Shown piece by piece: positions 140 to 30,843 of a stretch of 64,000 nucleotides of DNA. Both the position numbers and the translations under genes were made by a program. Location: contig NZ_GG692710.1 in the NCBI RefSeq assembly GCF_000156175.1, forward strand, positions 589,961-653,960, given 5' to 3'. The first letter of the stretch is position 1, and every line of letters begins with the position of its first letter. Origin of the DNA: Collinsella intestinalis DSM 13280 (GTDB lineage Bacteria > Actinomycetota > Coriobacteriia > Coriobacteriales > Coriobacteriaceae). Under the pieces are notes generated by a model, which was given only the letters and a program-made list of their open reading frames with translations, did not search any database and was not told the origin of the DNA.

Positions 140-1552
140 ATGGCAAAGAACCGCACCGAGGTCGCGGACATCGACCGCAGCCTCTACGACTTCCGCTATG
201 GCGAGGAGGGCTTCGAGCGCCTGGACGCCGGCCTCACACCCGATATCGTGCGCGAGATCTCCGAGCGCAAGAACGAGCCCGCCTGGATGCTCGAGCGTCG
301 TCTCAAGTCGCTCGAGATCTACCACAATACGCCCAACCCCACCTGGGGCCCGGGCATCGAGGGCCTGGACATGGATCACATCGTGACCTACGTCAAGCCC
401 AACACCGACCAGAAGAACGACTGGGAGTCCGTCCCTGACGATATTAAGGACACCTTCGAGCGCCTCGGCATCCCCGAGGCGGAGCGCAGCTACCTCGCGG
501 GCGTTGGCGCACAGTACGACTCCGAGCTCGTCTACCACAACATGCAGGACACCGCCGCCAAGATGGGCATCGTCTACTCCGGCATCGAGGAGGCCCTGCA
601 GATCCCCGAATGGGAGGCCATCATCCGCGAGAAGTTCATGACGCTCATCCCACCCACCGACCACAAGTTCGCCGCCCTGCACGGCGCGGTGTGGTCCGGC
701 GGCTCCTTCGTCTACGTGCCGAAGGGCATCAAGCTCGACTTCCCGCTGCAGAGCTACTTCCGCCTGAACGCGAAGGGTGCCGGCCAGTTCGAGCACACCC
801 TCATCGTGGTCGAGGACGACGCGGACCTGCACTTCATCGAGGGCTGCTCCGCGCCCAAGTACAACGTGGCCAACCTGCATGCGGGCGCTGTCGAGCTCTT
901 TGTTGGCAAGCGCGCGCACCTGCGGTACTCGACCATCGAGAACTGGTCGAAGAACATGTACAACTTAAACACCAAGCGTGCCCGCTGCGAGGAGGAGGGC
1001 GAGATCGAATGGATCTCGGGCTCCTTCGGCAGCCATGTGGGCTACCTCTACCCCATGAGCGTCCTCGCGGGCCGCAAGAGCCGCTCGAGCTTCACCGGCA
1101 TCACGTTCGCCGGCACCGGCCAGAACCTCGATACCGGCTGCAAGGTCGTGCTCGGCGCGCCCGACACCACCGCCACGGTCGAGACCAAGTCCATCTCCAA
1201 GGGCGGCGGCATCTCCACCTTCCGCAGCTCCATCGTGGCCACCCCGGCCGCCGAGGGATCCGCGGCGAGCGTCTCGTGCCAGTCACTCATGCTCGACGAC
1301 ATCAGCCGTTCGGACACCATCCCCGCGATGGACATCCGCGCCAAGAACGTCGACATCGGGCATGAGGCGACCATCGGCCGCATCGGCGACGATAAGATCT
1401 TCTATCTCATGAGCCGCGGCATCTCCGAGGAGGAGGCCCGCACCATGATCGTGAACGGCTTTGCGAATCCCGTTTCCAAGGAGCTCCCGCTCGAATACGC
1501 CGTCGAGATGAACAACCTGATCAAGCTCGAGATGGAAGGGGCGATCGGATAA
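140..1552 (+). CDS. sufB: Fe-S cluster assembly protein SufB
   Basis: 470-residue scaffold subunit of the SufBCD complex, which assembles Fe-S clusters in the cytosol using sulfur from SufS. Length and sequence match the SufB family along the whole chain. The C-terminal part carries the conserved histidine-containing stretch DIGHEATIGRIGDDKIFYLM and then an SRGISEEEA motif typical of the SufB/SufD core. An upstream in-frame start at 50 exists but would lie within the preceding gene. ATG 140 has an AAGGGG ribosome site and gives the family N-terminus. The stop overlaps the sufD start (TAATG), so the two are translationally coupled. Confidence 0.97.
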   Translation: MAKNRTEVADIDRSLYDFRYGEEGFERLDAGLTPDIVREISERKNEPAWMLERRLKSLEIYHNTPNPTWGPGIEGLDMDHIVTYVKPNTDQKNDWESVPDDIKDTFERLGIPEAERSYLAGVGAQYDSELVYHNMQDTAAKMGIVYSGIEEALQIPEWEAIIREKFMTLIPPTDHKFAALHGAVWSGGSFVYVPKGIKLDFPLQSYFRLNAKGAGQFEHTLIVVEDDADLHFIEGCSAPKYNVANLHAGAVELFVGKRAHLRYSTIENWSKNMYNLNTKRARCEEEGEIEWISGSFGSHVGYLYPMSVLAGRKSRSSFTGITFAGTGQNLDTGCKVVLGAPDTTATVETKSISKGGGISTFRSSIVATPAAEGSAASVSCQSLMLDDISRSDTIPAMDIRAKNVDIGHEATIGRIGDDKIFYLMSRGISEEEARTMIVNGFANPVSKELPLEYAVEMNNLIKLEMEGAIG

Positions 1553-2814
1553 TGAAGATGCCAGGTATGACTATCCGCCATGCGTCCGCCATGCCCGCCT
1601 CCACCTGGAGCTGGCTCAAGATGAACGACGTGACGATTCAGATCCCCGACGACCTCGAGCGCAACTGCCAGGTCGAGATTGAGGCGGGAGACACACTCGA
1701 CAACACCACCAGCTTCGAAGGCTCCGTCGCCGCACTCCAAGAGCGTATCGACAGTGCACGCACGGACAAGCCGGCCGATGAGCGCGCCATGATCACCGCC
1801 GCCACTGGCGCCGACCGTGGAGCCGAGGAGCTCTACATTCCCGCACTCTCAACCTATGAGCATCGCGCCGCGCTCTCCGAAATCGCTTGCGACATCGCCA
1901 ACGATTTTGAAACCGGCGTGGGCGCCGATATGCGCGCCTACCTCAACTTCCTTGCGGGCGGCACCGCCGTGCTCGCCACCGAGGAGGGTGAGGAAGCCGA
2001 GGCCACGATCCGCGTCACTACGCACGAGGGCGAGGCTTCGGGCGCCAGCATCGACATCGTCGCGGCGCCCAACTCCACCTTCTCCATCGCGCTCTCCCTC
2101 GACAGCGCCGCCGATGCCCCCGCCTTCATGGGTTCCACCATGCGTGTGTTCGCCGGCGCCGGGGCACGCGTCGACATCACGGTGTACCTCACCGCATCCG
2201 ATGCCGTCACCTGCGTCGAGGATTCCGGATTCGTTCTGGACAAGGACGCTCGTGTGAGCGTGCGCCACGTGGTCCTGGGCGGCGGCTTCACCGCCACCGG
2301 CCTCGCGGCCGACCTGCGCGGCGACCGCTCCCGCATCGACGTCGACACGAGCTATCTCGCTTCGGGCACCCAACAGCGCGACTTCAACTACATCATCCGC
2401 CATCGCGGGCGCAAGACCGTCTCCAACATGGATGCCAACGGCGTACTCACGGGCACGTCCAAGAAGTGCCTGCGCGGCACCATCGACCTCATCCACGGGG
2501 CAAAGGGCGCCGAGGGCAACGAGCGCGAGACTGTGCTGCTGGCGAGCAAGGGCGTGGACAACAAAACCGTCCCGAACATCCTGTGCGATGAGGACGACGT
2601 CGCGGGCAACCACGGAGCAACCATCGGCCACGTGCGTCCCGATCAGCTCTTCTACGCGGCATGCCGCGGCCTCTCCCAGGAGCAGACCGAGGCCCTGTTC
2701 CTTTCCGCAAAGCTCGAGGACGCCGCGCTGCAGGCGCCCAATGACGCCGTGCGCGCCAACGTCGTGCGCCTCGGCAACCAGATCATCCCGCATTTTGAGG
2801 AGGAGATCGCGTGA
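1552..2814 (+). CDS. sufD: Fe-S cluster assembly protein SufD
   Basis: 420-residue paralogue of SufB that forms the SufBC2D scaffold with it and SufC. The C-terminal core keeps the SufB/SufD signature (GNHGATIGHVRPDQLFY followed by ACRGLSQEQTEALFL). The N-terminal half is divergent, as usual for SufD. The start ATG shares a base with the sufB stop and the end overlaps the GTG start of sufS by four bases, so sufB, sufD and sufS form one tightly coupled unit. Confidence 0.95.
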   Translation: MKMPGMTIRHASAMPASTWSWLKMNDVTIQIPDDLERNCQVEIEAGDTLDNTTSFEGSVAALQERIDSARTDKPADERAMITAATGADRGAEELYIPALSTYEHRAALSEIACDIANDFETGVGADMRAYLNFLAGGTAVLATEEGEEAEATIRVTTHEGEASGASIDIVAAPNSTFSIALSLDSAADAPAFMGSTMRVFAGAGARVDITVYLTASDAVTCVEDSGFVLDKDARVSVRHVVLGGGFTATGLAADLRGDRSRIDVDTSYLASGTQQRDFNYIIRHRGRKTVSNMDANGVLTGTSKKCLRGTIDLIHGAKGAEGNERETVLLASKGVDNKTVPNILCDEDDVAGNHGATIGHVRPDQLFYAACRGLSQEQTEALFLSAKLEDAALQAPNDAVRANVVRLGNQIIPHFEEEIA

Positions 2815-4154
2815 TCGACACCGAGAACGTGACGTGCGACACCTGCACGGCTCCGTCTGAATTCGTCTTCGATGCTTCCGACGAGGTCAGCCGCGGCTGG
2901 CCGCGCGTCGATATCGAGCTCAACCCCTTCAAGGGCGACTTCCCACTGCTCGCCCAGCACCCCGAACTCGCCTTCCTGGACAGCGGTGCCACCGCTCAAC
3001 GTCCCGCCTGCGTGCTCGAGGCGCAGAAGACCTTCTATGAGACGATGAACGCCAACCCGCTGCGTGGCCTGTACTCGCTCTCCGTCGAGGCGACCGAGGC
3101 CATCGCGAAGGTCCGCTCGCAGGTCGCCGAGCTCATCGGCGCCGTGGACGAGCGCGGTCGCGCCCGCGCCAACGAGGTCGTCTTCTGCCGCAACACGAGC
3201 GAAGCCCTGAACATCGTAGCCAAAGGCTTTGCCCCGCGCGTGCTCGAGCCTGGCGACGAGGTTGTCATCTCCATCATGGAGCACCACTCCAACCTCATCC
3301 CCTGGCAGCAGGTCTGCCGCGAGACCGGCGCGAAGCTCGTCTACCTCTACCCAACCCCCACCGGCCAGATCACCGACGACGAGATCGCCGCCAAGATCGG
3401 CCCTGCGACCAAGATCGTCTCCTGCGGCCACGTCTCCAACGTGCTCGGCGTGGAGAACCCCATCGCCAAGCTCGCCGCGGCCGCTCACGCCAACGGCGCC
3501 TACATGGTGGTCGACGCCGCGCAGTCCGTCCCGCACATGGCCCTCGACGTGCGGGAGCTCGGGGCCGACTTCCTGGCTTTCTCCGCGCACAAGGCCCTCG
3601 GCCCCATGGGCGTTGGCGTGCTATGGGGTCGCACGGACCTGCTCGATCGCACCGACCCGGTCTACACCGGCGGCGAGATGATCGACTCCGTCACCGAGCA
3701 GGGAGCCACCTGGGCCCCCGTGCCCGAGAAGTTCGAGGCCGGCACGCAAGACGCCGCGGGCATCTACGCCACGGGCGTCGCGCTGGACTACCTCGTGAAC
3801 AAGGTCGGCTACGAGACCGTCGCCGAGCGCGAGCGCGCACTCGTCCACTACGCCATGAGCCGTATGGTCGAGCTTCCCTTCGTCGACATCGTCGGGTCCA
3901 TCTACTGGGACCAGCACCATGGCGCCATCAGCTTCAACGTGCGCGGTATCCACCCGCACGACGTCGCCAGCATCATGGACATGGACGGCGTGTGCATCCG
4001 CGCAGGCCACCACTGCGCTCAGCCGCTGCTCACCTGGCTTCAGGTCGAGAATCTCGCCTGCTGCCGCGCCAGCATCGCCTTCTACAACGACAAGTACGAC
4101 ATTGATCGCTTCATCGACTCCCTGAACCATGTCTGGAGCGTCTTCCACAACTAG
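2811..4154 (+). CDS. sufS: Cysteine desulfurase SufS
   Basis: 447-residue PLP-dependent class V aminotransferase-fold enzyme that removes sulfur from cysteine and hands it as persulfide to the suf scaffold. The PLP lysine is Lys261 in FSAHKALGPMG. The persulfide-forming cysteine is Cys402 in RAGHHCAQPLL, the group II (SufS/CsdA) arrangement. The start is GTG 2811, overlapping sufD. The family usually starts close to the segment NPFKGDFPLL, so about 40 extra N-terminal residues are present; they include a CDTC pair. No better internal start with a ribosome site is visible. Confidence 0.95.
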   Translation: MIDTENVTCDTCTAPSEFVFDASDEVSRGWPRVDIELNPFKGDFPLLAQHPELAFLDSGATAQRPACVLEAQKTFYETMNANPLRGLYSLSVEATEAIAKVRSQVAELIGAVDERGRARANEVVFCRNTSEALNIVAKGFAPRVLEPGDEVVISIMEHHSNLIPWQQVCRETGAKLVYLYPTPTGQITDDEIAAKIGPATKIVSCGHVSNVLGVENPIAKLAAAAHANGAYMVVDAAQSVPHMALDVRELGADFLAFSAHKALGPMGVGVLWGRTDLLDRTDPVYTGGEMIDSVTEQGATWAPVPEKFEAGTQDAAGIYATGVALDYLVNKVGYETVAERERALVHYAMSRMVELPFVDIVGSIYWDQHHGAISFNVRGIHPHDVASIMDMDGVCIRAGHHCAQPLLTWLQVENLACCRASIAFYNDKYDIDRFIDSLNHVWSVFHN

Positions 4155-4165
4155 TCGCACGCGCA

Positions 4166-4196
4166 CCTCAATTTAGGGACAGTCCCTAAATTGAGG
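4166..4196. repeat. Perfect 14-bp-arm palindrome, GGGGAC/GGGAC family
   Basis: Between sufS and sufU lies a palindrome with 14-base arms (CCTCAATTTAGGGA and its complement) around CAG. There is no T-run, so it is not a standard terminator. Variants recur at 4658, 23233, 32121, 36340 and 46528, which points to a dispersed REP-like repeat. Confidence 0.8.
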
Positions 4197-4222
4197 TTTT
4201 CAGTACACGAAAGGACCCGAGC

Positions 4223-4645
4223 ATGGGCAACCTCTACGGCTCCGCCTCTTTCATGGAGCACAATACACATCCCGACTACAAGTACGAGATGGATGCCCCC
4301 ACGCACACGCACGACGGCATCAACCCTAGCTGCGGTGACGAGCTCACGCTCTCGCTGCGCGTCGAGAACGGCGTGATCGTCGAGGCCGCGTTCACCGGTC
4401 ACGGCTGCGCCATCTCCCAGGCATCGGCCGACATTATGGCCGAGCTCATCACCGACGAGACCGTTGAGGAGGCAAAGCGCCTCTCGAGCCTTTTCCTCGC
4501 CATGATCCGCGGCGAGGAGCTCTCCGAGGAGGATTTCGAAGACCTCGACGAGGCCGCTCAGCTTAAGGACATCTCGCACATGCCGGCGCGTGTGAAGTGC
4601 GCCGAACTCGCCTGGCGCACCCTCGACGGCATGCTCGATGCCTAG
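4223..4645 (+). CDS. sufU: SufU-type Fe-S scaffold / zinc sulfurtransferase
   Basis: 140-residue IscU-fold protein. The expected metal ligands of SufU are all present: Cys37 and Asp39 (SCGDE), Cys62 (GHGCAIS) and Cys126 (RVKCAELAW). The 20-odd residue insertion between the second and third cysteines is the hallmark of SufU, not IscU. In Gram-positive suf systems SufU is a zinc-dependent acceptor that takes the persulfide sulfur from SufS. ATG 4223 has an AAAGGA site. It is separated from sufS by a palindromic repeat but is still on the same strand and clearly part of the suf locus. Confidence 0.94.
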   Translation: MGNLYGSASFMEHNTHPDYKYEMDAPTHTHDGINPSCGDELTLSLRVENGVIVEAAFTGHGCAISQASADIMAELITDETVEEAKRLSSLFLAMIRGEELSEEDFEDLDEAAQLKDISHMPARVKCAELAWRTLDGMLDA

Positions 4646-4657
4646 AGCCCTTCCACG

Positions 4658-4693
4658 CCCCTCGATTTGGGGACTGTCCCTAAATTGAGGGGG
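4658..4693. repeat. Imperfect GGGGAC-family palindrome after sufU
   Basis: Arms CCCCTCGATTTGGGGA and TCCCTAAATTGAGGGG pair with a few mismatches around CTG. It has the same core as the palindrome at 4166-4196. It sits between sufU and the osmolyte transporter and might act as a transcription barrier, but no T-run follows. Confidence 0.7.
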
Positions 4694-4749
4694 CACAAGG
4701 CGGCCACGCTCAATTCACCCGTCACCGTTTGCGACCTCGTTGAACCAAG

Positions 4750-5409
4750 GTGGAGATGATCCAGCAGATTACGACATACTTTTCCGAGCATGGGGCCGAA
4801 TGGGTCCAGATGGTCATCGACCATCTCGCCATCAGCGGCATGGCACTCGCCGCGGCGCTCGCCATCGCGGTCCCACTCGGCATCTTGTGTTCCCAGCACG
4901 CATGGAGCGAACGACTCGCCACCGGGACAGCTGGGGTCCTTCGCGTGATCCCCAGCCTGGCGATTCTCATTATCTGCGTACCGTACCTGGGCGTGGGCAC
5001 CGTGCCCGCAGTCGTGGCGCTCACCGTCCTCGCCATCCCGCCCATCCTCATCAACACGGCCGTCGCATTGAGAAGCGTCCCCGCCGATGTCATAGAGGCG
5101 GGAGTCGGCATGGGCATGAGTCCGGCTCGTCTCTGGCTCACCGTCAAGGCGCCGCTCGCCTTCCCGCTTGCCTTCTCCGGTGTCCGCACCGCCGCTTCCG
5201 AAATCATCGCATCCGCAACACTCGCAGCGTATATCGGGGCGGGCGGCCTGGGTATCCTCATCTATACCGGGCTCGGAGCGCTCCGTAACGTCCTGCTCTG
5301 GATCGGCGGCATCTCCGTCGCCGTGCTCTCGTTGATCGTCAATCGCGTGCTCGCCATGGTCGATCGACGCATCCGCACGTACGAACACGTCGGCTCATCC
5401 GCCCGCTGA
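4750..5409 (+). CDS. Glycine betaine/choline-type ABC transporter permease (first)
   Basis: 219-residue (217 if ATG 4756 is used) integral membrane protein with about five to six hydrophobic segments and the binding-protein-dependent permease EAA loop (VIEAGVGMGMSPARLWLTVKAPLAFP), the site that contacts the ATPase. Sequence and neighbours fit the OpuCB/OpuCD family that imports quaternary ammonium osmolytes. The frame begins at GTG 4750, but ATG 4756 lies better behind AAGGTGG. It is the first gene of a four-gene importer operon that ends at 8070. Confidence 0.88.
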   Translation: MEMIQQITTYFSEHGAEWVQMVIDHLAISGMALAAALAIAVPLGILCSQHAWSERLATGTAGVLRVIPSLAILIICVPYLGVGTVPAVVALTVLAIPPILINTAVALRSVPADVIEAGVGMGMSPARLWLTVKAPLAFPLAFSGVRTAASEIIASATLAAYIGAGGLGILIYTGLGALRNVLLWIGGISVAVLSLIVNRVLAMVDRRIRTYEHVGSSAR

Positions 5410-5541
5410 TTCTACGGACGGCCCTCGTTCCCGCCCATCGACCTCGGCGCAGCATGACCAACCGGCCGCCCGGCAATGTGAGAGCCGCCGTTGATCAGCC
5501 CTTCTAATCAGGCACGTGTCATTCCTTCCGAAAGGACCATC

Positions 5542-6453
5542 ATGAACACCACAATCACCCGTCGCAGCGCTCTAGCCCTATGTGGCACCGCAACACTCTC
5601 ATTCCTGAGCTCCTCATCTCTTTCCGGTTGCGGAAACTCCAAAGGCAGCGAGAACGCCATCACGGTCGGCTCGAAGGCCTTCACCGAGGGCGTCATCCTC
5701 TCCGAGCTCTACGCCCTTGCCCTGGAGGACGCGGGATTCAATGTCAATCGCTCGTTTGAGATCTCGGGTTCACTCATTCACACCGCCATCGAAAACGGCG
5801 ACATCGACCTGTACCCCGAATACACGGGCACCGGCCTCATCTCCGTCCTCAAGATGGACCCCCTGACCGACCCCGAGGAGGTCTACGAGACCGTTAAGAG
5901 CGCCTATGCCGATCGGTTCGATCTAGTATGGCTGAGCAAGTCCGAGGCTGCCGATGGCCAGGGGCTTGTGATTCGCACCGAGGCCGCAAAGAAGTACGGG
6001 ATCAAGACCATCTCCGACCTGCAGGCCCACGCCGAAGACCTGCGCTTCGCCAGCCAGGGTCAATTCGACGAGCGAGCCGACGGCCTCCCCGCCCTCGAGG
6101 CCACCTATGGCCCCTTCGACTGGAAGGCCTCCGCGATTTACGACGAGGGTTTGAAGTACGAGGTGCTTCGCAACGACGAGGCCGACGTCACCCCCGCTTA
6201 CACCACAGAAGCCCAGCTCACCTACCCCAGCTTCACGCTGCTCGAGGATGACAAGCACGTTTGGCCGCCCTACAACGTGGCTCCCGTCGTGCGCGCCGAA
6301 GTCCTCGAGGCCAACCCCGGTATCGCCGAGGCGCTCGATCGCGTGAACGCCGCCCTCACCACCGAGGAGCTCACGCGCCTCAACGCCCGCGTTGACATCG
6401 ACAAGGAGGATTACGAGGACGTCGCGAAGGACTACTACGACTCCATTTCATAG
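5542..6453 (+). CDS. Osmolyte-binding lipoprotein of the ABC transporter (OpuAC/ProX-type)
   Basis: 303-residue extracytoplasmic binding protein. The N-terminus has paired arginines (TRRSALAL), a hydrophobic stretch and the lipobox LSGC with acylated Cys30, so it is a lipoprotein, possibly Tat-exported. The mature part opens with ITVGSKAFTEGVILSELYA, typical of the OpuAC family that binds betaine, carnitine or choline in an aromatic cage. A TTG start at 5491 is also open, but ATG 5542 has GAAAGGA and gives a clean signal peptide. It lies 131 bases after the first permease gene. Confidence 0.9.
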   Translation: MNTTITRRSALALCGTATLSFLSSSSLSGCGNSKGSENAITVGSKAFTEGVILSELYALALEDAGFNVNRSFEISGSLIHTAIENGDIDLYPEYTGTGLISVLKMDPLTDPEEVYETVKSAYADRFDLVWLSKSEAADGQGLVIRTEAAKKYGIKTISDLQAHAEDLRFASQGQFDERADGLPALEATYGPFDWKASAIYDEGLKYEVLRNDEADVTPAYTTEAQLTYPSFTLLEDDKHVWPPYNVAPVVRAEVLEANPGIAEALDRVNAALTTEELTRLNARVDIDKEDYEDVAKDYYDSIS

Positions 6454-6469
6454 CAGTCGCGGCACTTCA

Positions 6470-6600
6470 ATGAGGTTTTTCGTACTGATTCCGGCAGGTT
6501 CGAAGTACATTCCCTTGTCGGCGCTTCCCCAACTGGGGCTTTGTCAGGGCCCAGCGCGCCTCTACTTCGCAAAACCCAACACGAGTACGAAAAACCTCAT
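6470..6600. repeat. 131-bp element with 17-bp inverted ends, within the osmolyte operon
   Basis: The 17 bases ATGAGGTTTTTCGTACT at 6470-6486 recur as an exact inverted copy at 6584-6600. They lie between the binding-protein gene and the ATPase gene, and the interior has no reading frame of note. Size and form match the other long inverted repeats in this window (14543, 39576, 51543), though the end sequence differs. Confidence 0.75.
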
Positions 6601-6655
6601 CCAACATCAGCTCCCGACATGACAAGGCAACGTTACGAGCGGAGAAGGACGGCTC

Positions 6656-24061: not shown

Positions 24062-24096
24062 ACTGTCGAGAGCGCACGGAACGGACAAAATATGCC

Positions 24097-24140
24097 GAAC
24101 CAAAAAGGTCCGAGCTGAGATTGCCGGACTTTTTTGGTTC
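24097..24140. terminator. Bidirectional terminator, HD gene / accessory cluster
   Basis: The stem GAACCAAAAAGGTCCG and its near-complement CGGACTTTTTTGGTTC contain A- and T-runs usable on both strands. They separate the HD gene from the converging accessory operon. Confidence 0.8.
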
Positions 24141-24150
24141 AGACGCTGCC

Positions 24151-24825
24151 CTATTTGACCTCAATGTCAACCACATGTCGGACTGGCATATTTGTCACGG
24201 TAAACGAATAGCTCCCAGCATCAAGCGGCAAACGATTCACATCGCCCATGGCAGCCGGAAATCGCTTATTAAGCAAGGCGCTGAATGGAACGTGAACCGT
24301 AAACGTCGTACCAGGTTTAACAGAAAGCTGAAACGCTCCATCGATCTGCGGAACCGATGCACCGAACAGTGAATGATCGACACGCAGCCACAACTCACGC
24401 GCCCTATCCGGAACAACGCTCCATCCTATTGAATCCAGGTAGCCCTTGTCTTCATCGCCCTGCTTGTTATTCGCAATTTCAATATCGAGCACGAGGAGAG
24501 TTAATTCCTCCATATCCGTCTCGTCACCGAGAAGTGGATAATATGAGCTGGGATCAGAAACATATTTATCGAGATACTGATTGCACGACATCCTCCGAGC
24601 ACCCTCAACCGTCAGAGACAGACCATCAGTGTTTTCCGTCTTATACTCTGCATATGACCCCTCAAGATCAACCTCCCTTCCTAATGCATGCCGCGTCACC
24701 GGATACGAAAGGGCATTCTCGTTCACAAAGGAGACACGGGCAGCAAACAGACCCATCGCTGCAATCGCCACGGACCCGACCAGGACCGCTCCCAGGACAC
24801 AGGGCCGTCGTTTAACATCCATCAT
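24151..24825 (-). CDS. Membrane-anchored extracytoplasmic protein, last gene of the accessory operon
   Basis: 224 residues, family not recognised with certainty. A short basic N-terminus and one hydrophobic segment (about residues 10-30) anchor a beta-rich ectodomain. Its pattern (LTLLVLDIEIANN, then SVKPGTTFTVHVPFSAL and YSFTVTNM) recalls DUF4352/DUF5028-like immunoglobulin-type domains. A similar layout occurs in the product of 27169-27918, so the two may be distant paralogues. It overlaps the ATPase gene by 14 bases. The role may be a substrate-binding, sensing or immunity partner of the ABC transporter; this is inference. Confidence 0.7.
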   Translation of the reverse strand: MMDVKRRPCVLGAVLVGSVAIAAMGLFAARVSFVNENALSYPVTRHALGREVDLEGSYAEYKTENTDGLSLTVEGARRMSCNQYLDKYVSDPSSYYPLLGDETDMEELTLLVLDIEIANNKQGDEDKGYLDSIGWSVVPDRARELWLRVDHSLFGASVPQIDGAFQLSVKPGTTFTVHVPFSALLNKRFPAAMGDVNRLPLDAGSYSFTVTNMPVRHVVDIEVK

Positions 24826-25486
24826 GAGTCACCCACATGTTTCCCTCTCTTACCTCACGACCATCCAAATGACCCTCGGCCAAGTAAACAATCTCATCGG
24901 ATAAAGTGCGCAACACGGTGGCATCGTGGCACGCCAATACAATCGCGGCACCACGCTGACGCTCGCGCTCAACCACGCGATGAATCATGCGGACGCCTTC
25001 GCTATCGAGCGCATTGGTCGGCTCGTCAAGAATGATTAAATCAGGACGCTCCATGACGGCGGCGGCGATGCCCAATCGCTGCTTCATGCCAAGCGAGTAT
25101 TTTCGAAATCGGCGCTTATCATCAGGGTCGAGCCCCACATCCTCCATCGCCGCGCGCACCTCGTCAATGCAAATCTTTTCCTGCACCGCAGCAACAAGAC
25201 GAAGATTGTCCAGCCCCGAGCGTGTATCCAAAAAAGAAGGCGACTCAATCAAAATGCCGGCACTCGGGGGAAACGAGAGGTCGCGCCCCAGCGTCAACCC
25301 ATCGATTATTACCGTGCCCGAAGTTGGCTTGACAAGCCCCACCATTACGCGCATCAGCATCGTCTTGCCCGAACCGTTTACTCCGGCAAGGCCCAAAACG
25401 CTACCCGAAGATATGGAAACCGTTATATCTCGAAGAACATCGACGCCACCTATGCGCTTGCCAAGCCCTTGCACGTCCAGCCTCAT
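24812..25486 (-). CDS. ABC transporter ATP-binding protein of the accessory operon
   Basis: 224-residue ATPase of the ABC-2/antibiotic-exporter type. Walker A is GVNGSGKT, the signature is YSLGMKQRLG and Walker B is LIILDEPTNALD, followed by ACHD as switch region. The SLGMKQRLG form is typical of bacteriocin immunity and antimicrobial-peptide efflux ATPases (BcrA/LanF type). It overlaps the permease gene start by four bases, so it is translationally coupled to it. It probably energises the two permeases upstream. Confidence 0.9.
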   Translation of the reverse strand: MRLDVQGLGKRIGGVDVLRDITVSISSGSVLGLAGVNGSGKTMLMRVMVGLVKPTSGTVIIDGLTLGRDLSFPPSAGILIESPSFLDTRSGLDNLRLVAAVQEKICIDEVRAAMEDVGLDPDDKRRFRKYSLGMKQRLGIAAAVMERPDLIILDEPTNALDSEGVRMIHRVVERERQRGAAIVLACHDATVLRTLSDEIVYLAEGHLDGREVREGNMWVTHDGC

Positions 25487-26337
25487 GACGAGAACTCCTT
25501 ATCCATGATATCCATGTGTGAAAAACCAAAGCCCCCTACCACTGCGGCAATCACTGTAATCACAAGAGCAATTCCACATCCCAGGATTGGGTCGGTTCCA
25601 TGGGCGATGAAGGCTGAACTGCGCGAGAGCATTAGATAGTTACCCACAAGCAGCGGATCAAAGAAATAAGCCGAGGTAAAAAGCAACGACGCCCCACAGG
25701 CAAAACTCATAATGGGCCTAACCATCAAAGAGAGCACAAGCTGAATCAAACAGAGCGCGCACGACATCGAAACAGCCGGGCATATCGCAGGAAGAATAGA
25801 AGTTACATCGACTGCAAGGTCAAGCGAATCGATGCCAGAGAACAACAGGAGCTCCTCCGACGGCATCTGGCCGAGCGACCCAGACATGATGACTGAGATA
25901 ACCGCTGAAACAAGTAGCATGAGGCCCCAATAAGTCAGAACGTACGAAACGGTCCATACGCATTTTGAGAGCCACCAACTCCAACGTTCCCCCGCTTCGA
26001 CCATAAGCGTCTTTCCTATTCCCATTAGATTGCGATACGGAAAACGCAAAGGTATGAACAGCATAAGCAGCATAGAAAGCATCCACTCGACAGGAAGGAC
26101 AAAAGGCATATTTGATGCGGGATCATAAATCATGCTGCCTCCTGCTATCGATAGAACAAAGTCGGCAAAGGTCGCCTTTGAATAATCGGCGCCGGAAGCA
26201 TCCGCCTTCAAAAATAAAAGCCCTATGAGAAGCACAAACAGAGCGCAGGATATGAACATCAGTCGCACAATGCTCGCGAATCCTTCGATCGCATCCGCAC
26301 GCAGCAGACGGAAAAATCGGGCAATTCTATTTTTCAT
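25483..26337 (-). CDS. ABC-2-like permease subunit (second)
   Basis: 284-residue integral membrane protein with about six hydrophobic segments: one near residue 30, one near 95 and four in the second half. A large polar loop follows the first segment. There is no motif beyond the general ABC-2 permease plan, in which a first helix is followed by an extracellular loop and four to five later helices. Four-base overlaps with both neighbours (ATPase and first permease) show operon membership. It likely forms a heterodimer with the product of 26334-27200. Confidence 0.8.
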   Translation of the reverse strand: MKNRIARFFRLLRADAIEGFASIVRLMFISCALFVLLIGLLFLKADASGADYSKATFADFVLSIAGGSMIYDPASNMPFVLPVEWMLSMLLMLFIPLRFPYRNLMGIGKTLMVEAGERWSWWLSKCVWTVSYVLTYWGLMLLVSAVISVIMSGSLGQMPSEELLLFSGIDSLDLAVDVTSILPAICPAVSMSCALCLIQLVLSLMVRPIMSFACGASLLFTSAYFFDPLLVGNYLMLSRSSAFIAHGTDPILGCGIALVITVIAAVVGGFGFSHMDIMDKEFSS

Positions 26338-27200
26338 AAGACATCAGACTCTTTATGCGAGAACAACAGTATAAAGGCCCCAACTGCCATAACCAACGCA
26401 ACAACAGCGGCAGGAACCGCCTCGCGAGGGAAAATCCCCGAACCGCCATGATAGAGCAGGTCCGTTAAGCTGAAAGTAAATCCAGACAAGTCCAGAATAT
26501 AAAAGACCCACTGATTTATAAGACGGATTGCGAAAGTCAACAAAAACGATCCGACAACCAATGCAATGCGATTGCGGACGATTGTGGAAGCCGCCAGCAC
26601 GAGACCGCCCCACAGACCACACAACGCAAAAGCAAGCAGAGTGCTGTAGATTACATACAGCAAGGGAGTCGTAAAAAACTCTCGCGCCCAGAGCTCGTGG
26701 GGTTGCATACCAATGTAAAGATTTGACACGACCTCTGGTGTATAAGCAGGCAAAAAACAAAGAAGTACCAATAGACTCACGATGAGCGGAATGGCAACCA
26801 CAAGTCCAGACGTAATGAAAGCGGCGAAGTAGCGCGCAACGAGCACCGACTCACGGGGGCAACGCACGTACTGCTGCGCGATCGATCCATCATCCATATC
26901 CGCACGCAAGGTCCAGCTGTATGGAACCACCACGAACAAGGGCATCAGGAAGAATAGGATACCCGACCGAAAGGGGTCTCCCGTGCCAACAACAACCCAC
27001 GAGGCATAAGCACTCGATGCGGTCAATCCGGCCCACTCGTTGCCATCCTGCATGATTTGATGCCCAATCCCATGCACGGCAACGCTACTTTCCGCACTCC
27101 AGAGCACAATGAACAGCGCGGCTGCAAGTGACGCTGCGAACCAGCGATTTTTGACAGCCTTATCGAGTTCAATGCGCAACAGAGCTACCAAGTGGCTCAC
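26334..27200 (-). CDS. ABC-2-like permease subunit (first)
   Basis: 288-residue membrane protein with six hydrophobic segments. The N-terminal VALLRIELDKAVKNRWFAA is the usual cytoplasmic entry of ABC-2 permeases (elk-type motif before the first helix). The start is GTG 27200 with GAGGGGG. The first 32 bases overlap the end of the preceding exoprotein gene, suggesting coupling. Two distinct permease halves with one ATPase is the LanFEG-like plan of lantibiotic immunity exporters, though no lanthionine enzymes are present. Confidence 0.8.
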   Translation of the reverse strand: MSHLVALLRIELDKAVKNRWFAASLAAALFIVLWSAESSVAVHGIGHQIMQDGNEWAGLTASSAYASWVVVGTGDPFRSGILFFLMPLFVVVPYSWTLRADMDDGSIAQQYVRCPRESVLVARYFAAFITSGLVVAIPLIVSLLVLLCFLPAYTPEVVSNLYIGMQPHELWAREFFTTPLLYVIYSTLLAFALCGLWGGLVLAASTIVRNRIALVVGSFLLTFAIRLINQWVFYILDLSGFTFSLTDLLYHGGSGIFPREAVPAAVVALVMAVGAFILLFSHKESDVL

Positions 27201-27918
27201 ACTGCCCCCTCATATCATCAACTTTTAGTAAAATGCGATATTTATTTGGGTTAATCGCACCAGCACTCATAAAGAACTCATCGTTTTCGGGATCGCCATT
27301 CGCTCCGCCGATGGCATAACCCACCGTAAAGCAACGTTCCTCGCCAGGGGCAATGTCGAAATAACCCACCTCCTTGCGACCAGCATCCTGCTTGTCAACA
27401 CCGCTGAAATACACCTGTTCAACCGCTGGATGAAGAGAAAGAATGTTGCTCGCTAAAAAACGCTTATTACCCACAAAGGTCTTTAAGGTTGGGTGGGCAT
27501 CGACATTTTTAACAGTAAAATCAACGAGCATGAAATCAAAGTCCTCAATACTTCCCGCGTCCCCATTAAAGAGCGTAGCCCCTGTTAGGCAGTTGTCGGT
27601 CGACGCGATTCCCGCGGCCTCAGGATCGTCGTAGCGGGCCGCCTGGCTTATCCGAACTTGCAAGGTTCCCTCAAAACCGAAGTCGGCACTGTAGGATTCC
27701 ACAGGTGAAAAGGGAACACAAATCGTATCGGCAGCATCCCGACTCGCATCAAGGGTCACCCACTCGTCCATCGCGTAAGTGTTGTTGAGACTATTTTGAG
27801 CATTGGATCGAGCGAGCGACTGAATTACTCCAAGAGTTGCTGCCACACCAAATACAGCGGCAATAGCGGCGGCAACCACGACAGCACGGAACAACGCCCG
27901 TTTCATACGTGGCAACAT
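27169..27918 (-). CDS. Membrane-anchored extracytoplasmic protein of the accessory operon
   Basis: 249 residues, unknown. One N-terminal hydrophobic helix (about residues 8-28, rich in Ala and Val) precedes a soluble ectodomain of about 215 residues, with strands such as FDFMLVDFTVKNV and FDIAPGEERCFTVGYAIGG. The layout resembles the product of 24151-24825. No lipobox is seen. ATG 27918 (MLPRMKR) has GGAAGG; a second ATG at 27906 and longer frames are possible. It sits between the secreted-protein gene and the permeases. Confidence 0.7.
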   Translation of the reverse strand: MLPRMKRALFRAVVVAAAIAAVFGVAATLGVIQSLARSNAQNSLNNTYAMDEWVTLDASRDAADTICVPFSPVESYSADFGFEGTLQVRISQAARYDDPEAAGIASTDNCLTGATLFNGDAGSIEDFDFMLVDFTVKNVDAHPTLKTFVGNKRFLASNILSLHPAVEQVYFSGVDKQDAGRKEVGYFDIAPGEERCFTVGYAIGGANGDPENDEFFMSAGAINPNKYRILLKVDDMRGQCEPLGSSVAH

Positions 27919-27980
27919 ATCCAACCTTCCAGAAATGGTCGCTGCGGCGAAACCCGTTGCGCCGCAGCGACCCATAGGCA

Positions 27981-28454
27981 CTAGTTCAAATCGGCATAGT
28001 TGCCAGAGCAATCAGGACTCCAAACGCCCTTAAGCTTTGCCGATCCGTAATCAGAAGACGCACCAAGACGCGCCCAGCGACGACCGGTCTCGTACACATT
28101 GTTGTGGATCTCGTACTTACCTGGACCAGGAGAAACTACATACCCGCCGATTGTCAAATTGGCGTAGTTTGCCCCGCCGCTGCTGGTGGCACCATCAACA
28201 TAGAGGCGCATATTGGCGCCACTCCGCGAGTCGATACGAATATACGTCGATGACGAAGTGTCCTTGGGGCGATAAGCGGTGTTCTGACGTTGGAACCACC
28301 CATCAAAATTGAAACCGTAGCTGCTATCCACATCATTCACCGGCACAACGCCAGCATCAACCGTTGCTGCCATCGCTGGCGACGGAATAGCAAGGCCAGA
28401 CGTGACGATCATTGCACCCGCCAGACCAACCAGAACTTTTTGTTTGATACCCAT
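27981..28454 (-). CDS. Small secreted protein, DUF2712-like
   Basis: 157 residues with a clear Sec signal peptide (basic MGIKQK, hydrophobic core, cleavage after SPAMA around residue 29). The mature part of about 128 residues is Gly/Ser/Asn/Tyr rich and ends in YGSAKLKGVWSPD. The layout (YGFNF, an Arg-Pro-Lys segment, repeated aromatic and Gly positions, GVW near the end) resembles DUF2712 and more loosely lactococcin-972-type secreted proteins, both often encoded beside ABC transporters. This assignment is from memory of the family pattern, so moderate. The mature chain has one Cys near the end. ATG 28454 has AAGGGGAG; a longer frame to 28508 lacks a site. Confidence 0.72.
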   Translation of the reverse strand: MGIKQKVLVGLAGAMIVTSGLAIPSPAMAATVDAGVVPVNDVDSSYGFNFDGWFQRQNTAYRPKDTSSSTYIRIDSRSGANMRLYVDGATSSGGANYANLTIGGYVVSPGPGKYEIHNNVYETGRRWARLGASSDYGSAKLKGVWSPDCSGNYADLN

Positions 28455-28495
28455 GCTTTGTCTCCCCTTCTTATACGAAGCTAGACTTGCAAAAC

Positions 28496-28507
28496 TGAAG
28501 TACTTCA
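28496..28507. promoter_or_regulatory. Perfect 12-bp palindrome TGAAGTACTTCA upstream of the secreted-protein gene
   Basis: It is centred about 47 bases before the start codon of the DUF2712-like gene and 75 bases after the regulator stop. It is a plausible binding site for the HTH regulator encoded next to it, but no convincing -35/-10 pair could be aligned with it. Confidence 0.4.
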
Positions 28508-28576
28508 AGGGAAATCATCGCAAGAAAAGGGCAACTTGTCTGTAATCACCCAATATGAGATTGAATGAATAAGCGA

Positions 28577-30715
28577 TTACACGTCGTCTACCTTTGACAA
28601 AAGGCGCAGCAGCCCAAGACGATCATGAATGCTCAAGCGCAAATATCCTTCCCTCCGCGCGCTGTTAACCGTACCGCGCGAACAACTGAGTTCACAGCAA
28701 ATATCTGACGAGCTCTTCCCCTCCGCGATAAGCAGCAAAACGGAGGCCTGCGTATCGTTCAAGCCATATCCGAGTAACAGATGTCGCGCTCTCTCCTTCA
28801 GCGCGAGCGGGGTGCAAGAAACGCCGCATGCAGACCCAATCACGCGAAGACGGCGAGACGCCATAAACACAAGCACGAGAACGAGCGCAGTAAGAACACC
28901 AACCGCAACGCAGCATAGGACAACAAAGGCAGCTCGACCTCCATACGGCTGCGTCAAGCCATCATTTCCCCATATCATATCGCCGAATCGGTTGACAATC
29001 ACATCGGCGGCGATTGCAGAAAGTCCGAACGTCATGATACACAGCCCGACCTGAGATAAGACAACCTCACCCGATCGAATGGATTCGATAAGCAAGCCGA
29101 TGGAAGAAAGCAATGCGAGTAGATATAGACCAATGGGAAGGGTGTAAGCCATGGCTGTCGAAACAGCTGCGATGCCAGCCAACACCCCTAATTCCCTCCG
29201 ATAAGCCAAACGCTCTAAGTTCAATAGCGGGGGCACAATGCAGAGAACAATCCCCACCTCTAGAGGACCTAGGATATTGGGCAAGGCAAACGGACCAGTC
29301 GCACGTAGCAGCTCCTCCCAAGAAAATCCGAGCGAGGCAAACAACACCATATGGGAAACTACGGAAGAATCAACCTCCTTACCCCAATCGAGATTTACAG
29401 CCCATGCTGCACCAATCAGGGCAAGAGACAAACCCGTCGCATACATCAACTCACGCCACGCACCCCATTTTTCTGTAGAGATGCATACCGGAACGAATAT
29501 GATAGCTCCAATGGCTAAAGCGACCACGAACACCGCGGCGCGAAAACGATAGGAAGCGAAAGCGAATTCCCCAACGCTTGACCCCTCCTCCATTCCCGCC
29601 TCGGCGGTGTTGGACGAGAGCTCCTTAACAAATGTCAAAAAGCTCTCTTTCCCCTCAACCCCCAACTTGCGATAAGACCGCTGTAATGCGCTACGAACTG
29701 TTGCGGGTTTAATCGATAACTTTGTGGCTATTTCCCCGGATGTACTTCCTGATGCATATAACAAAGCAATTTGTGACTCTCGAGGCGCCAGGCCGTGCTG
29801 CTCGAACGTAAGGCGTAAATCATCCACTGAAAAGCCTTTAGGGCCGTGCGCCAGATCGATATTTGATTCCGGCGTCAGAGCACGGCGAGAATACCAAGCA
29901 AGCAATAGCGTCGCCGCCACAATCAAAGAGAACGCAATAAAGGCCAGGAATGGCATCGGGCCCGATAAAAACCAACTCAACGGGACAACACGAATAAGTG
30001 CGCCCCATGTTATGACTCCAAGCGCAAGCCAGACGGCATCCAACACACGACCTCGCACATGATTTCCCCCCGGCAGCGTCCAAGTCGCAAATGTTGCCAC
30101 AGCAAACACAGCAAAGTGAAAAGAGAGATTCAGGAAAGCAGATTCTGGAATAGGGAGAGAGGATGCGAAAATATTTCCAGAACCAATTCGAATGAAAAAC
30201 CCCGCTATCAGCATCAATGCAGATCGGTCCGCAATATGTACTGCGCTATTGTTTTGTTCATTATCGGCGCCCGCTGAAAAGGCCCCTTGGGACAAATAGC
30301 CTACAACAATCAACGCGCCCGCTGCACCTACAAACCAAGGTCCAAAAACTCTTTCGAACTCCATAAGGCGCACATATTGATTCGAACCAAAAAACCCAAG
30401 ACTGCGGCTCGCCTCAACATAATAAATGACACTCGCCCAGTCGCGCGCCACAAAAGACATCAAGAGTACAACGACAAGCAAAGTAATGGCCACCATTGAC
30501 CTGTTTGAACTTCGGCACATTTGGAAGAAGCGTCGCTTCGGACAAGAGGACCGCGCGAGAAGCGCCCCCATAAGAAGTCCCAAAGCAAATGCGATGGGCA
30601 ACGGCGAAACAGAAGGATTGCCTGAGACAAAGGGGTCTTTTAGAACATCAAACGGAGCGGATAGAAATAAAACGATAAGCACCGCTATAAGTAACTCACA
30701 ATGACGCCAGCTCAT
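28577..30715 (-). CDS. Membrane regulator with two membrane domains and two LuxR-type HTH domains
   Basis: 712 residues (725 if a TTG at 30754 is used). The order is about eight hydrophobic segments (residues 1-285), LuxR-type HTH 1 (about 303-362, LAPRESQIALLYASGSTSGEIATKL split by standard spacing, then KPATVRSAL), about seven to eight more segments (about 380-630) and HTH 2 (about 649-707, NDTQASVLLLIAEGKSSSD then SRGTVNSAR). HTH 2 lacks the conserved PRE glutamate and is divergent. No ATPase, receiver or kinase domain is present. Coriobacteria have many LuxR proteins with one membrane domain plus one HTH; this looks like an internal duplication of that plan. It is the first gene of the operon running to 24151. 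ATG 30715 follows GGACGGGAAT. Confidence 0.85.
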   Translation of the reverse strand: MSWRHCELLIAVLIVLFLSAPFDVLKDPFVSGNPSVSPLPIAFALGLLMGALLARSSCPKRRFFQMCRSSNRSMVAITLLVVVLLMSFVARDWASVIYYVEASRSLGFFGSNQYVRLMEFERVFGPWFVGAAGALIVVGYLSQGAFSAGADNEQNNSAVHIADRSALMLIAGFFIRIGSGNIFASSLPIPESAFLNLSFHFAVFAVATFATWTLPGGNHVRGRVLDAVWLALGVITWGALIRVVPLSWFLSGPMPFLAFIAFSLIVAATLLLAWYSRRALTPESNIDLAHGPKGFSVDDLRLTFEQHGLAPRESQIALLYASGSTSGEIATKLSIKPATVRSALQRSYRKLGVEGKESFLTFVKELSSNTAEAGMEEGSSVGEFAFASYRFRAAVFVVALAIGAIIFVPVCISTEKWGAWRELMYATGLSLALIGAAWAVNLDWGKEVDSSVVSHMVLFASLGFSWEELLRATGPFALPNILGPLEVGIVLCIVPPLLNLERLAYRRELGVLAGIAAVSTAMAYTLPIGLYLLALLSSIGLLIESIRSGEVVLSQVGLCIMTFGLSAIAADVIVNRFGDMIWGNDGLTQPYGGRAAFVVLCCVAVGVLTALVLVLVFMASRRLRVIGSACGVSCTPLALKERARHLLLGYGLNDTQASVLLLIAEGKSSSDICCELSCSRGTVNSARREGYLRLSIHDRLGLLRLLSKVDDV

Positions 30716-30843
30716 ATTCCCGTCCAGCCTTGAGAAAATCAATTCATATCCCAATGCAACTCATGGGCGCTGCATCGGCCCCCCGTTATTATCCTCTCAG
30801 ACTCGCAGCGCACCCCAATACATTTGCCTAACAATATATTCTC

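What the first reader, a model, noticed from the sequence alone, without database searches (positions are those of the whole stretch)
24151..30715. Candidate undescribed secreted-protein/ABC/membrane-regulator system
Seven genes on one strand, most with overlapping ends, form one unit: a membrane-bound regulator, a small secreted DUF2712-like protein, an anchored ectodomain protein, two ABC-2-like permeases, an ATPase and a second anchored ectodomain protein. The block is lower in GC than its neighbours (sampled 60-base lines at 47-48% against 60% in the GGGtGRT gene), so it may have been acquired. The permease pair plus single ATPase recalls LanFEG immunity exporters, yet no lanthionine, protease or leaderless-bacteriocin genes are present. 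One reading is a system in which the secreted protein is sensed by, or protected against through, the transporter and ectodomain proteins, with the regulator reporting the state at the membrane. That function is inference; the gene set and order are seen.
Basis: partly seen in the sequence, partly recalled or inferred. Interest (0 to 1): 0.8.

Follow-up and report, generated by a model that had tools for sequence, protein, structure and literature searches.

The report
Widespread secreted-protein and transporter cassette
A gut actinobacterium carries an acquired seven-gene cassette (a secreted protein, an ABC exporter, two surface proteins and a membrane regulator) whose core recurs in the same order across Coriobacteriia, Clostridia and Bacilli and looks most like an undescribed protein bacteriocin with its own self-protection, although its activity has not been tested.

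Summary
Seven minus-strand genes (24151-30715/30754) form a low-GC block (49-54% against 61-66%) between an HD-domain gene and proA. Closely related genomes lack the block at that site.

It is a conserved unit, not a chance grouping. In 150 genomes of the order, every confident relative of the secreted protein (15 loci) has PermA-PermB-ATPase-DUF5028 next to it. The same layout occurs in Vescimonas, Lachnospiraceae, Bacillus, Priestia, Enterococcus, Listeria, a Carnobacterium plasmid and a prophage-like contig. Component divergences correlate (r 0.58-0.85).

Two results bear on function. First, of 27 transporter loci, 8 lack the secreted protein and 1 has a remnant, but the secreted protein never lacks the transporter: toxin needs immunity, not the reverse. 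Second, a hairpin lies just after the secreted-protein gene in 23 of 35 loci, with unrelated sequences (3% at random positions, 11% at other same-strand gaps). This implies the secreted protein is made in excess.

Best reading: a Sec-exported, unmodified, all-beta antibacterial protein with a LanFEG-like exporter and MPT63-like surface proteins for self-protection, switched by a tandem membrane LuxR regulator. It works like a lactococcin-972 or lantibiotic operon but fails the membership tests for both. Antibacterial activity is inferred (about 0.5). No held paper names DUF2712 or DUF5028.

The parts
28577..30754 (-). Reg: membrane-bound regulator, two fused halves, each several TM helices followed by a LuxR-type (GerE) HTH; start ATG 30715 or TTG 30754
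   Evidence: GerE at 322-369, second HTH at 669-701; 12 predicted TM segments
27981..28454 (-). Sec: secreted DUF2712-like protein, signal peptide ending AMAA, mature part about 127 aa with C-terminal WSPD motif (ORF as listed begins TTG 28508; ATG 28454 has the ribosome site)
   Evidence: AlphaFold2 all-beta, low confidence
27937..27972 (-). 13-bp stem-loop directly downstream of Sec, before EctoA; intra-operon attenuator or RNA-stability element (function inferred)
27169..27918 (-). EctoA: single-TM anchored extracellular protein, DUF5027-like (weak); relatives in Clostridia have lipobox-like N-termini
26334..27200 (-). PermA: 6-TM ABC-2-like permease, no Pfam match
25483..26337 (-). PermB: ABC-2-like permease, 5-6 TM
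24812..25486 (-). ATPase of the ABC exporter, nearest to the lantibiotic-protection (LanF) family, below its cut-off
24151..24825 (-). DUF5028-like single-TM anchored protein; ectodomain model has the MPT63/YxkC/YjhA-type beta-sandwich
24095..24135 (.). inverted repeat with T-tract after the last gene, likely bidirectional terminator closing the block
   Evidence: (stem 24095-24113) and sequence printed

Best explanation
The block is a horizontally acquired bacteriocin-type cassette. The Sec protein is exported by the general Sec pathway, cleaved after the signal peptide and released as an unmodified, all-beta, roughly 13-kDa antibacterial protein acting at the cell surface of related bacteria. 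The two-permease/one-ATPase exporter removes it from the producer's own membrane, as LanFEG does with lantibiotics. The two anchored ectodomain proteins (EctoA and the MPT63-like DUF5028 protein) shield the producer's surface target or hand the protein to the exporter. The hairpin after the Sec gene uncouples expression so that the secreted protein is made in excess of the membrane proteins. The tandem membrane LuxR regulator switches the operon on in response to an unknown membrane-level cue. Shown here: gene content, conserved order, co-inheritance, acquisition, the asymmetric co-occurrence, the conserved hairpin, the DUF5028 fold class (predicted). Inferred: antibacterial activity, target, immunity role of the exporter and ectodomains, the regulator's cue.
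For: Conserved order Sec-(EctoA)-PermA-PermB-ATPase-DUF5028 at every confident Sec locus in 150 genomes of the order, and similar layouts in Clostridia, Bacilli, plasmids and a prophage-like contig. Asymmetry over 27 transporter loci: 18 with Sec, 1 remnant, 8 without; Sec never without transporter. Hairpin of 9 bp or more right after Sec in 23 of 35 loci, against 3 of 94 other operon genes, 3.3% of random positions and 11 of 99 other co-directional gaps (Fisher p 1e-6). ATPase best hit is the lantibiotic-protection family. Lipoprotein-type EctoA in Clostridia. Paired or duplicated Sec genes (L028, L079). Mobile, patchy distribution and an empty site in relatives. The Lcn972 precedent of Sec-secreted, unmodified beta-sandwich bacteriocins with a presumed immunity/ABC pair (PMC11796350).
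Against: No activity data. Sec shows no detectable homology to any bacteriocin family. The predicted beta fold is generic and low in confidence (pLDDT 58.6). The DUF5028 fold matches MPT63-like proteins rather than known lantibiotic immunity proteins among the hits returned. Transporter loci without Sec would also be expected if the transporter were an antibiotic-sensing or detox module that Sec merely accompanies.
Confidence: 0.5

Rival explanations
1. Envelope-stress or detoxification module (Bce/Psd-like in spirit): the exporter plus ectodomains protect against foreign or host cell-wall-active compounds, and the Sec protein is a secreted decoy or sensor ligand whose state is read by the regulator.
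For: Eight transporter loci have no Sec; one (L049) follows a two-component system; MPT63-like ectodomains resemble B. subtilis surface lipoproteins, one modelled with the penicillin-binding protein DacA (9a4z).
Against: Where Sec is present the exporter always follows it in fixed order, the two co-diverge (r 0.58-0.69), and Sec is set up for excess expression. Sec sequences are diverse and sometimes paired, more like a set of toxins than one decoy.
Confidence: 0.22
2. Signalling cassette: Sec is an extracellular signal protein, the ectodomains are its receptors and the membrane LuxR regulator its output; the ABC transporter clears the signal.
Against: The regulator is swapped for ECF sigma/anti-sigma or two-component genes or missing while Sec and the exporter stay constant, and the regulator's other relatives are general TM-LuxR proteins.
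Confidence: 0.13
3. Surface-structure cassette: Sec is an adhesin or cell-wall component and the ABC system with ectodomains assembles or anchors it.
For: All-beta prediction with weak similarity to carbohydrate-binding modules (Z up to 7, within the range the tool calls common).
Against: No sortase motif or other anchor seen in the aligned Sec sequences; a classical signal peptide makes a dedicated exporter unnecessary; ABC-2/LanF-type exporters are not known as adhesin assemblers.
Confidence: 0.08
4. Chance grouping of unrelated genes.
For: None beyond weak individual family matches.
Against: Fixed gene order in more than 20 divergent loci over several classes; distance correlations p<0.0005.
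Confidence: 0.01

Closest known systems
Lactococcin 972 family operons (lclA/B plus ABC ATPase; streptococcin B scbABC)
   Same: Sec-secreted, unmodified, beta-rich small protein encoded first, followed by membrane protein and ABC genes presumed to give immunity; patchy and often plasmid-borne.
   Different: No PF09683 match in any of 22 members, no profile-profile match (hhalign probability 0.5%), no DUF1430-type large membrane protein, different ABC (LanF-like, two or three small permeases), extra anchored ectodomains, mature protein about twice as long.
LanFEG lantibiotic immunity exporters (NisFEG, SpaFEG, MutFEG)
   Same: Short ATPase plus two 6-TM ABC-2-like permeases, with an extracellular anchored or lipoprotein partner (cf. 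LanI).
   Different: ATPase at half the TIGR03740 cut-off (155 against 309.75 bits), permeases match no lantibiotic permease model, no lanthionine cyclase anywhere in the genome, secreted partner uses a normal signal peptide.
DUF2712 / DUF2705 / WxPxxD clusters of Priestia, Listeria and Enterococcus (uncharacterised)
   Same: Same overall layout: secreted protein, permeases, LanF-like ATPase, anchored ectodomain.
   Different: Three permeases of other subfamilies, no WSPD motif, different ectodomain. These are the firmicute branch of the same cassette type.
Coriobacterial 10-12-TM LuxR regulators (DadR, HcdR, CadR; PMC9734109)
   Same: Multi-TM N-terminal part with LuxR HTH, encoded next to the genes they control.
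   Different: Here two TM-plus-HTH halves are fused in tandem (725 aa), with one HTH in mid-protein.

Membership tests
Lactococcin 972 bacteriocins | PF09683 domain in the secreted protein | tested here: not met
   22 members scanned, none; hhalign probability 0.5%
Lactococcin 972 bacteriocins | Sec-type signal peptide, no modification enzymes in the cluster | tested here: met
   signal peptide judged by eye and hydropathy, not by a dedicated predictor
Lactococcin 972 bacteriocins | ABC ATPase of TIGR03608 and large DUF1430-type membrane protein | tested here: not met
   85 bits against cut-off 254.85; no DUF1430-type match to any of the seven proteins
LanFEG lantibiotic protection transporter | ATPase over the TIGR03740 cut-off | tested here: not met
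   best-scoring family, but 155.1 against 309.75 bits
LanFEG lantibiotic protection transporter | permeases matching lantibiotic permease models | tested here: not met
   PermA and PermB match no lantibiotic permease model
LanFEG lantibiotic protection transporter | linked lanthipeptide synthesis genes | tested here: not met
   no LanC-like gene in the genome
DUF2712 (PF10916) | match over the gathering score | tested here: inconclusive
   window protein 17 against 22 bits; L061, with the same WSPDS motif, passes at 23.7, and Enterococcus/phage members in like clusters score 71
DUF5028 (PF16431) | match over the gathering score | tested here: inconclusive
   26.8 against 29.9 bits; orthologues in the same operon position are annotated DUF5028 in C. 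aerofaciens and Vescimonas
MPT63/DUF4352-like extracellular domains | immunoglobulin-like beta-sandwich fold of MPT63, YjhA, YxkC | tested here: met
   DUF5028 model hits 9a4z, 3cfu, 1lmi, 5bxg, 4r4g, 4les at Z 8.0-9.4, clear of unrelated rows (6.2 and below); prediction only, pLDDT 78
Coriobacterial TM-LuxR regulators | LuxR HTH with multi-TM part | tested here: met
Coriobacterial TM-LuxR regulators | single C-terminal HTH after 10-12 TM helices | tested here: not met
   two HTH domains, one in mid-protein
Bacteriocins in general | kills or inhibits related bacteria; producer protected | not testable with these tools
   needs expression and killing assays

The most novel reading that the evidence does not exclude
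A large, undescribed superfamily of Sec-exported protein antibacterials (WSPD and DUF2712 types), each linked to a LanFEG-like exporter and MPT63-like immunity ectodomains, spread over Coriobacteriia, Clostridia, Bacilli, plasmids and prophages, with toxin excess set by a position-conserved but sequence-free hairpin.
Probability: 0.45. Interest if true: 0.78.

Novelty: new variant of a known kind. Interest (0 to 1): 0.6.

Why it matters
If the reading is right, two uncharacterised domain families (DUF2712, DUF5028) and a class of ABC exporters would gain a function: competition among human gut Actinobacteria and Firmicutes by unmodified secreted proteins. Such proteins need no modification enzymes, so they are easy to express and test as narrow-spectrum agents. 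Antimicrobial mining that keys on lanthionine enzymes, double-glycine leaders or PF09683 would not be expected to find them. The conserved hairpin and the asymmetric co-occurrence give simple rules for finding further members.

Tried and rejected
Chance grouping: rejected by synteny and co-divergence. Lactococcin 972 membership: rejected. Lantibiotic cluster: rejected. Anti-phage defence: PADLOC gave only generic ATPase and HTH matches. Known RNA element in the block: none in Rfam. Sigma-70 promoters: no more than in shuffles, so no promoter is claimed. Sec fold: Foldseek and VIA-align gave only common beta-sandwich matches, so no fold-based function is claimed. A search for solved relatives of Sec gave nothing significant. 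Backtranslated Sec searches of viral contigs and alignments of Sec for genome scans failed, so the survey was made with the ATPase, whose wider hits include ordinary LanF-like exporters. Papers: no held paper contains DUF2712, DUF5028 or DUF2705; no paper on this cassette was found. The hairpin count depends on the threshold (stem of 9 bp or more, one mismatch) and some loci share ancestry, so the p value is indicative only.

Full report
WHAT IS THERE. In transcription order: Reg (28577-30754 or from ATG 30715; 725 aa), Sec (27981-28508 as an ORF; ATG 28454 preceded by GGGGAG is the likely start), EctoA (27169-28011 as an ORF; ATG 27918 is the likely start), PermA (26334-27200), PermB (25483-26337), ATPase (24812-25486), DUF5028 protein (24151-24825). 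Four junctions overlap; Reg-Sec and Sec-EctoA do not. GC drops to 49-54% inside the block from 61-66% around it. An inverted repeat with T-tract closes the block at 24095-24135.

FAMILIES. Sec: DUF2712 at 17 bits, cut-off 22. DUF5028 protein: 26.8 bits, cut-off 29.9. EctoA: DUF5027 at E 0.01. ATPase: clear ABC. Reg: two LuxR-type HTH. Permeases: no Pfam match. In NCBIfam the ATPase scores best with the lantibiotic protection family TIGR03740, at half its cut-off. The genome has no LanC-like gene.

ACQUISITION. The HD-domain gene and proA flank the block. In two genomes of the same genus they lie about 80 bp apart; in the closest one found (flanking proteins 91-98% identical) the same site holds a short stretch with ECF sigma/anti-sigma-like genes, not the block. 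Genome names are withheld, but a same-genus relative's Sec protein is 98% identical to one on a Collinsella aerofaciens plasmid, so the genus is most likely Collinsella.

SYNTENY. Searching 150 genomes of the order with Sec gave 16 copies at E<=1e-5 in 15 loci; each has PermA, PermB, ATPase and DUF5028 in the same order, and many have EctoA and a long membrane LuxR regulator upstream. The best regulator relatives outside the window are those of other such loci. PermA gave 27 loci in 21 genomes: 18 have Sec adjacent, one has a truncated remnant (L048), eight have transporter and ectodomains only. DUF5028 gave 21 places in 15 genomes, consistent with the same loci.

REACH. Named records: C. aerofaciens plasmid, Vescimonas plasmid with sigma-70/DUF4367 genes upstream, Carnobacterium plasmid with repeated cassettes, Priestia plasmids with bona fide DUF2712 and three permeases, Listeria. 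An ATPase-guided scan of 84,980 species genomes found the layout in Coriobacteriales, Lactimicrobium, Lachnospiraceae, Bacillus inaquosorum and Enterococcus moraviensis; in more distant loci (Lachnotalea, Clostridium tetanomorphum, Butyrivibrio) other small signal-peptide proteins sit in the same place. On a viral contig the block follows holin- and amidase-like genes, the usual place for prophage cargo.

CO-DIVERGENCE. Over 17 complete loci the pairwise identities of Sec, PermA, PermB, ATPase and DUF5028 correlate (r 0.58-0.85, all permutation p<0.0005). ATPase is the slowest (47% mean identity); Sec, permeases and DUF5028 are fast (23-32%).

HAIRPIN. Directly after the Sec stop codon the window has a 13-bp stem at 27937-27972. 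A stem of 9 bp or more lies within 65 nt of the stop in 23 of 35 Sec loci, with unrelated sequences; the rate is 3 of 94 for other genes of the operon, 3.3% at random positions and 11 of 99 for other same-strand gaps of 35-260 nt (Fisher p 1e-6). Some firmicute copies have a T-tract (leaky terminator); the coriobacterial ones examined mostly do not (RNA processing or stability). Known lantibiotic operons place a hairpin after the structural gene to make peptide in excess; that comparison is from general knowledge and was not found in the held papers.

STRUCTURE. Sec is predicted all-beta (eight strands) at low confidence, with only generic matches. The DUF5028 ectodomain is predicted well (pLDDT 78) and falls among MPT63/YjhA/YxkC-type secreted beta-sandwiches, Z 8.0-9.4. 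One of those entries is a YxkC-DacA model, a hint, no more, at cell-wall enzymes.

INTERPRETATION. Sec has its own signal peptide, so the ABC system is not needed to export it. The exporter can exist without Sec, Sec not without the exporter. Sec is set up for excess. The cassette is mobile and patchy and its Sec genes are diverse and sometimes paired. These features together match toxin plus self-protection better than sensing, adhesion or housekeeping. The Lcn972 family is the precedent for unmodified Sec-secreted beta-sandwich bacteriocins with presumed immunity/ABC genes whose roles are likewise unproven (PMC11796350). Membership in Lcn972 or LanFEG was tested and not met, so this is filed as a new variant that works like them. 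Antibacterial action, target and the regulator's cue remain inference.

Noticed in passing
L133 (IMGVR_UViG_3300033127_000172), 1368-6621: DUF2712 protein, three permeases and LanF-like ATPase directly after holin- and amidase-like genes on a viral contig: possible prophage cargo.
   Followed up: partly
window 28577-30754; L026, L029, L031, L037, L042: Tandem-fused membrane LuxR regulators (two TM-plus-HTH halves in one chain), an architecture different from the described 10-12-TM single-HTH LuxRs.
   Followed up: partly
L025 (Carnobacterium plasmid NZ_CP016845), 623-9360: Repeated cassettes: 4-TM protein, Sec, permeases, ATPase, ectodomain and an Rv2525c-like glycoside-hydrolase protein with a peptidoglycan-binding domain.
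   Followed up: no
L148 2611-3886: ECF sigma/anti-sigma-like genes occupy the same HD-proA site in the closest genome: a variable insertion site.
   Followed up: partly
L048 5250-8591: Truncated Sec and interrupted ATPase in G144: decayed copy or assembly error.
   Followed up: no
Sec alignment A1; window 28007-28009: Cysteines in the NCT and WSPDC motifs tend to occur together (possible disulfide); the window protein keeps only the second.
   Followed up: no
L079 798-1735, L095 4676-5113, L090 5223-5639, L099 5821-6243: Other small signal-peptide proteins without Pfam family sit at the Sec position before LanF-like exporters in Lachnospiraceae and other Clostridia, so the cassette type is wider than DUF2712.
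   Followed up: partly
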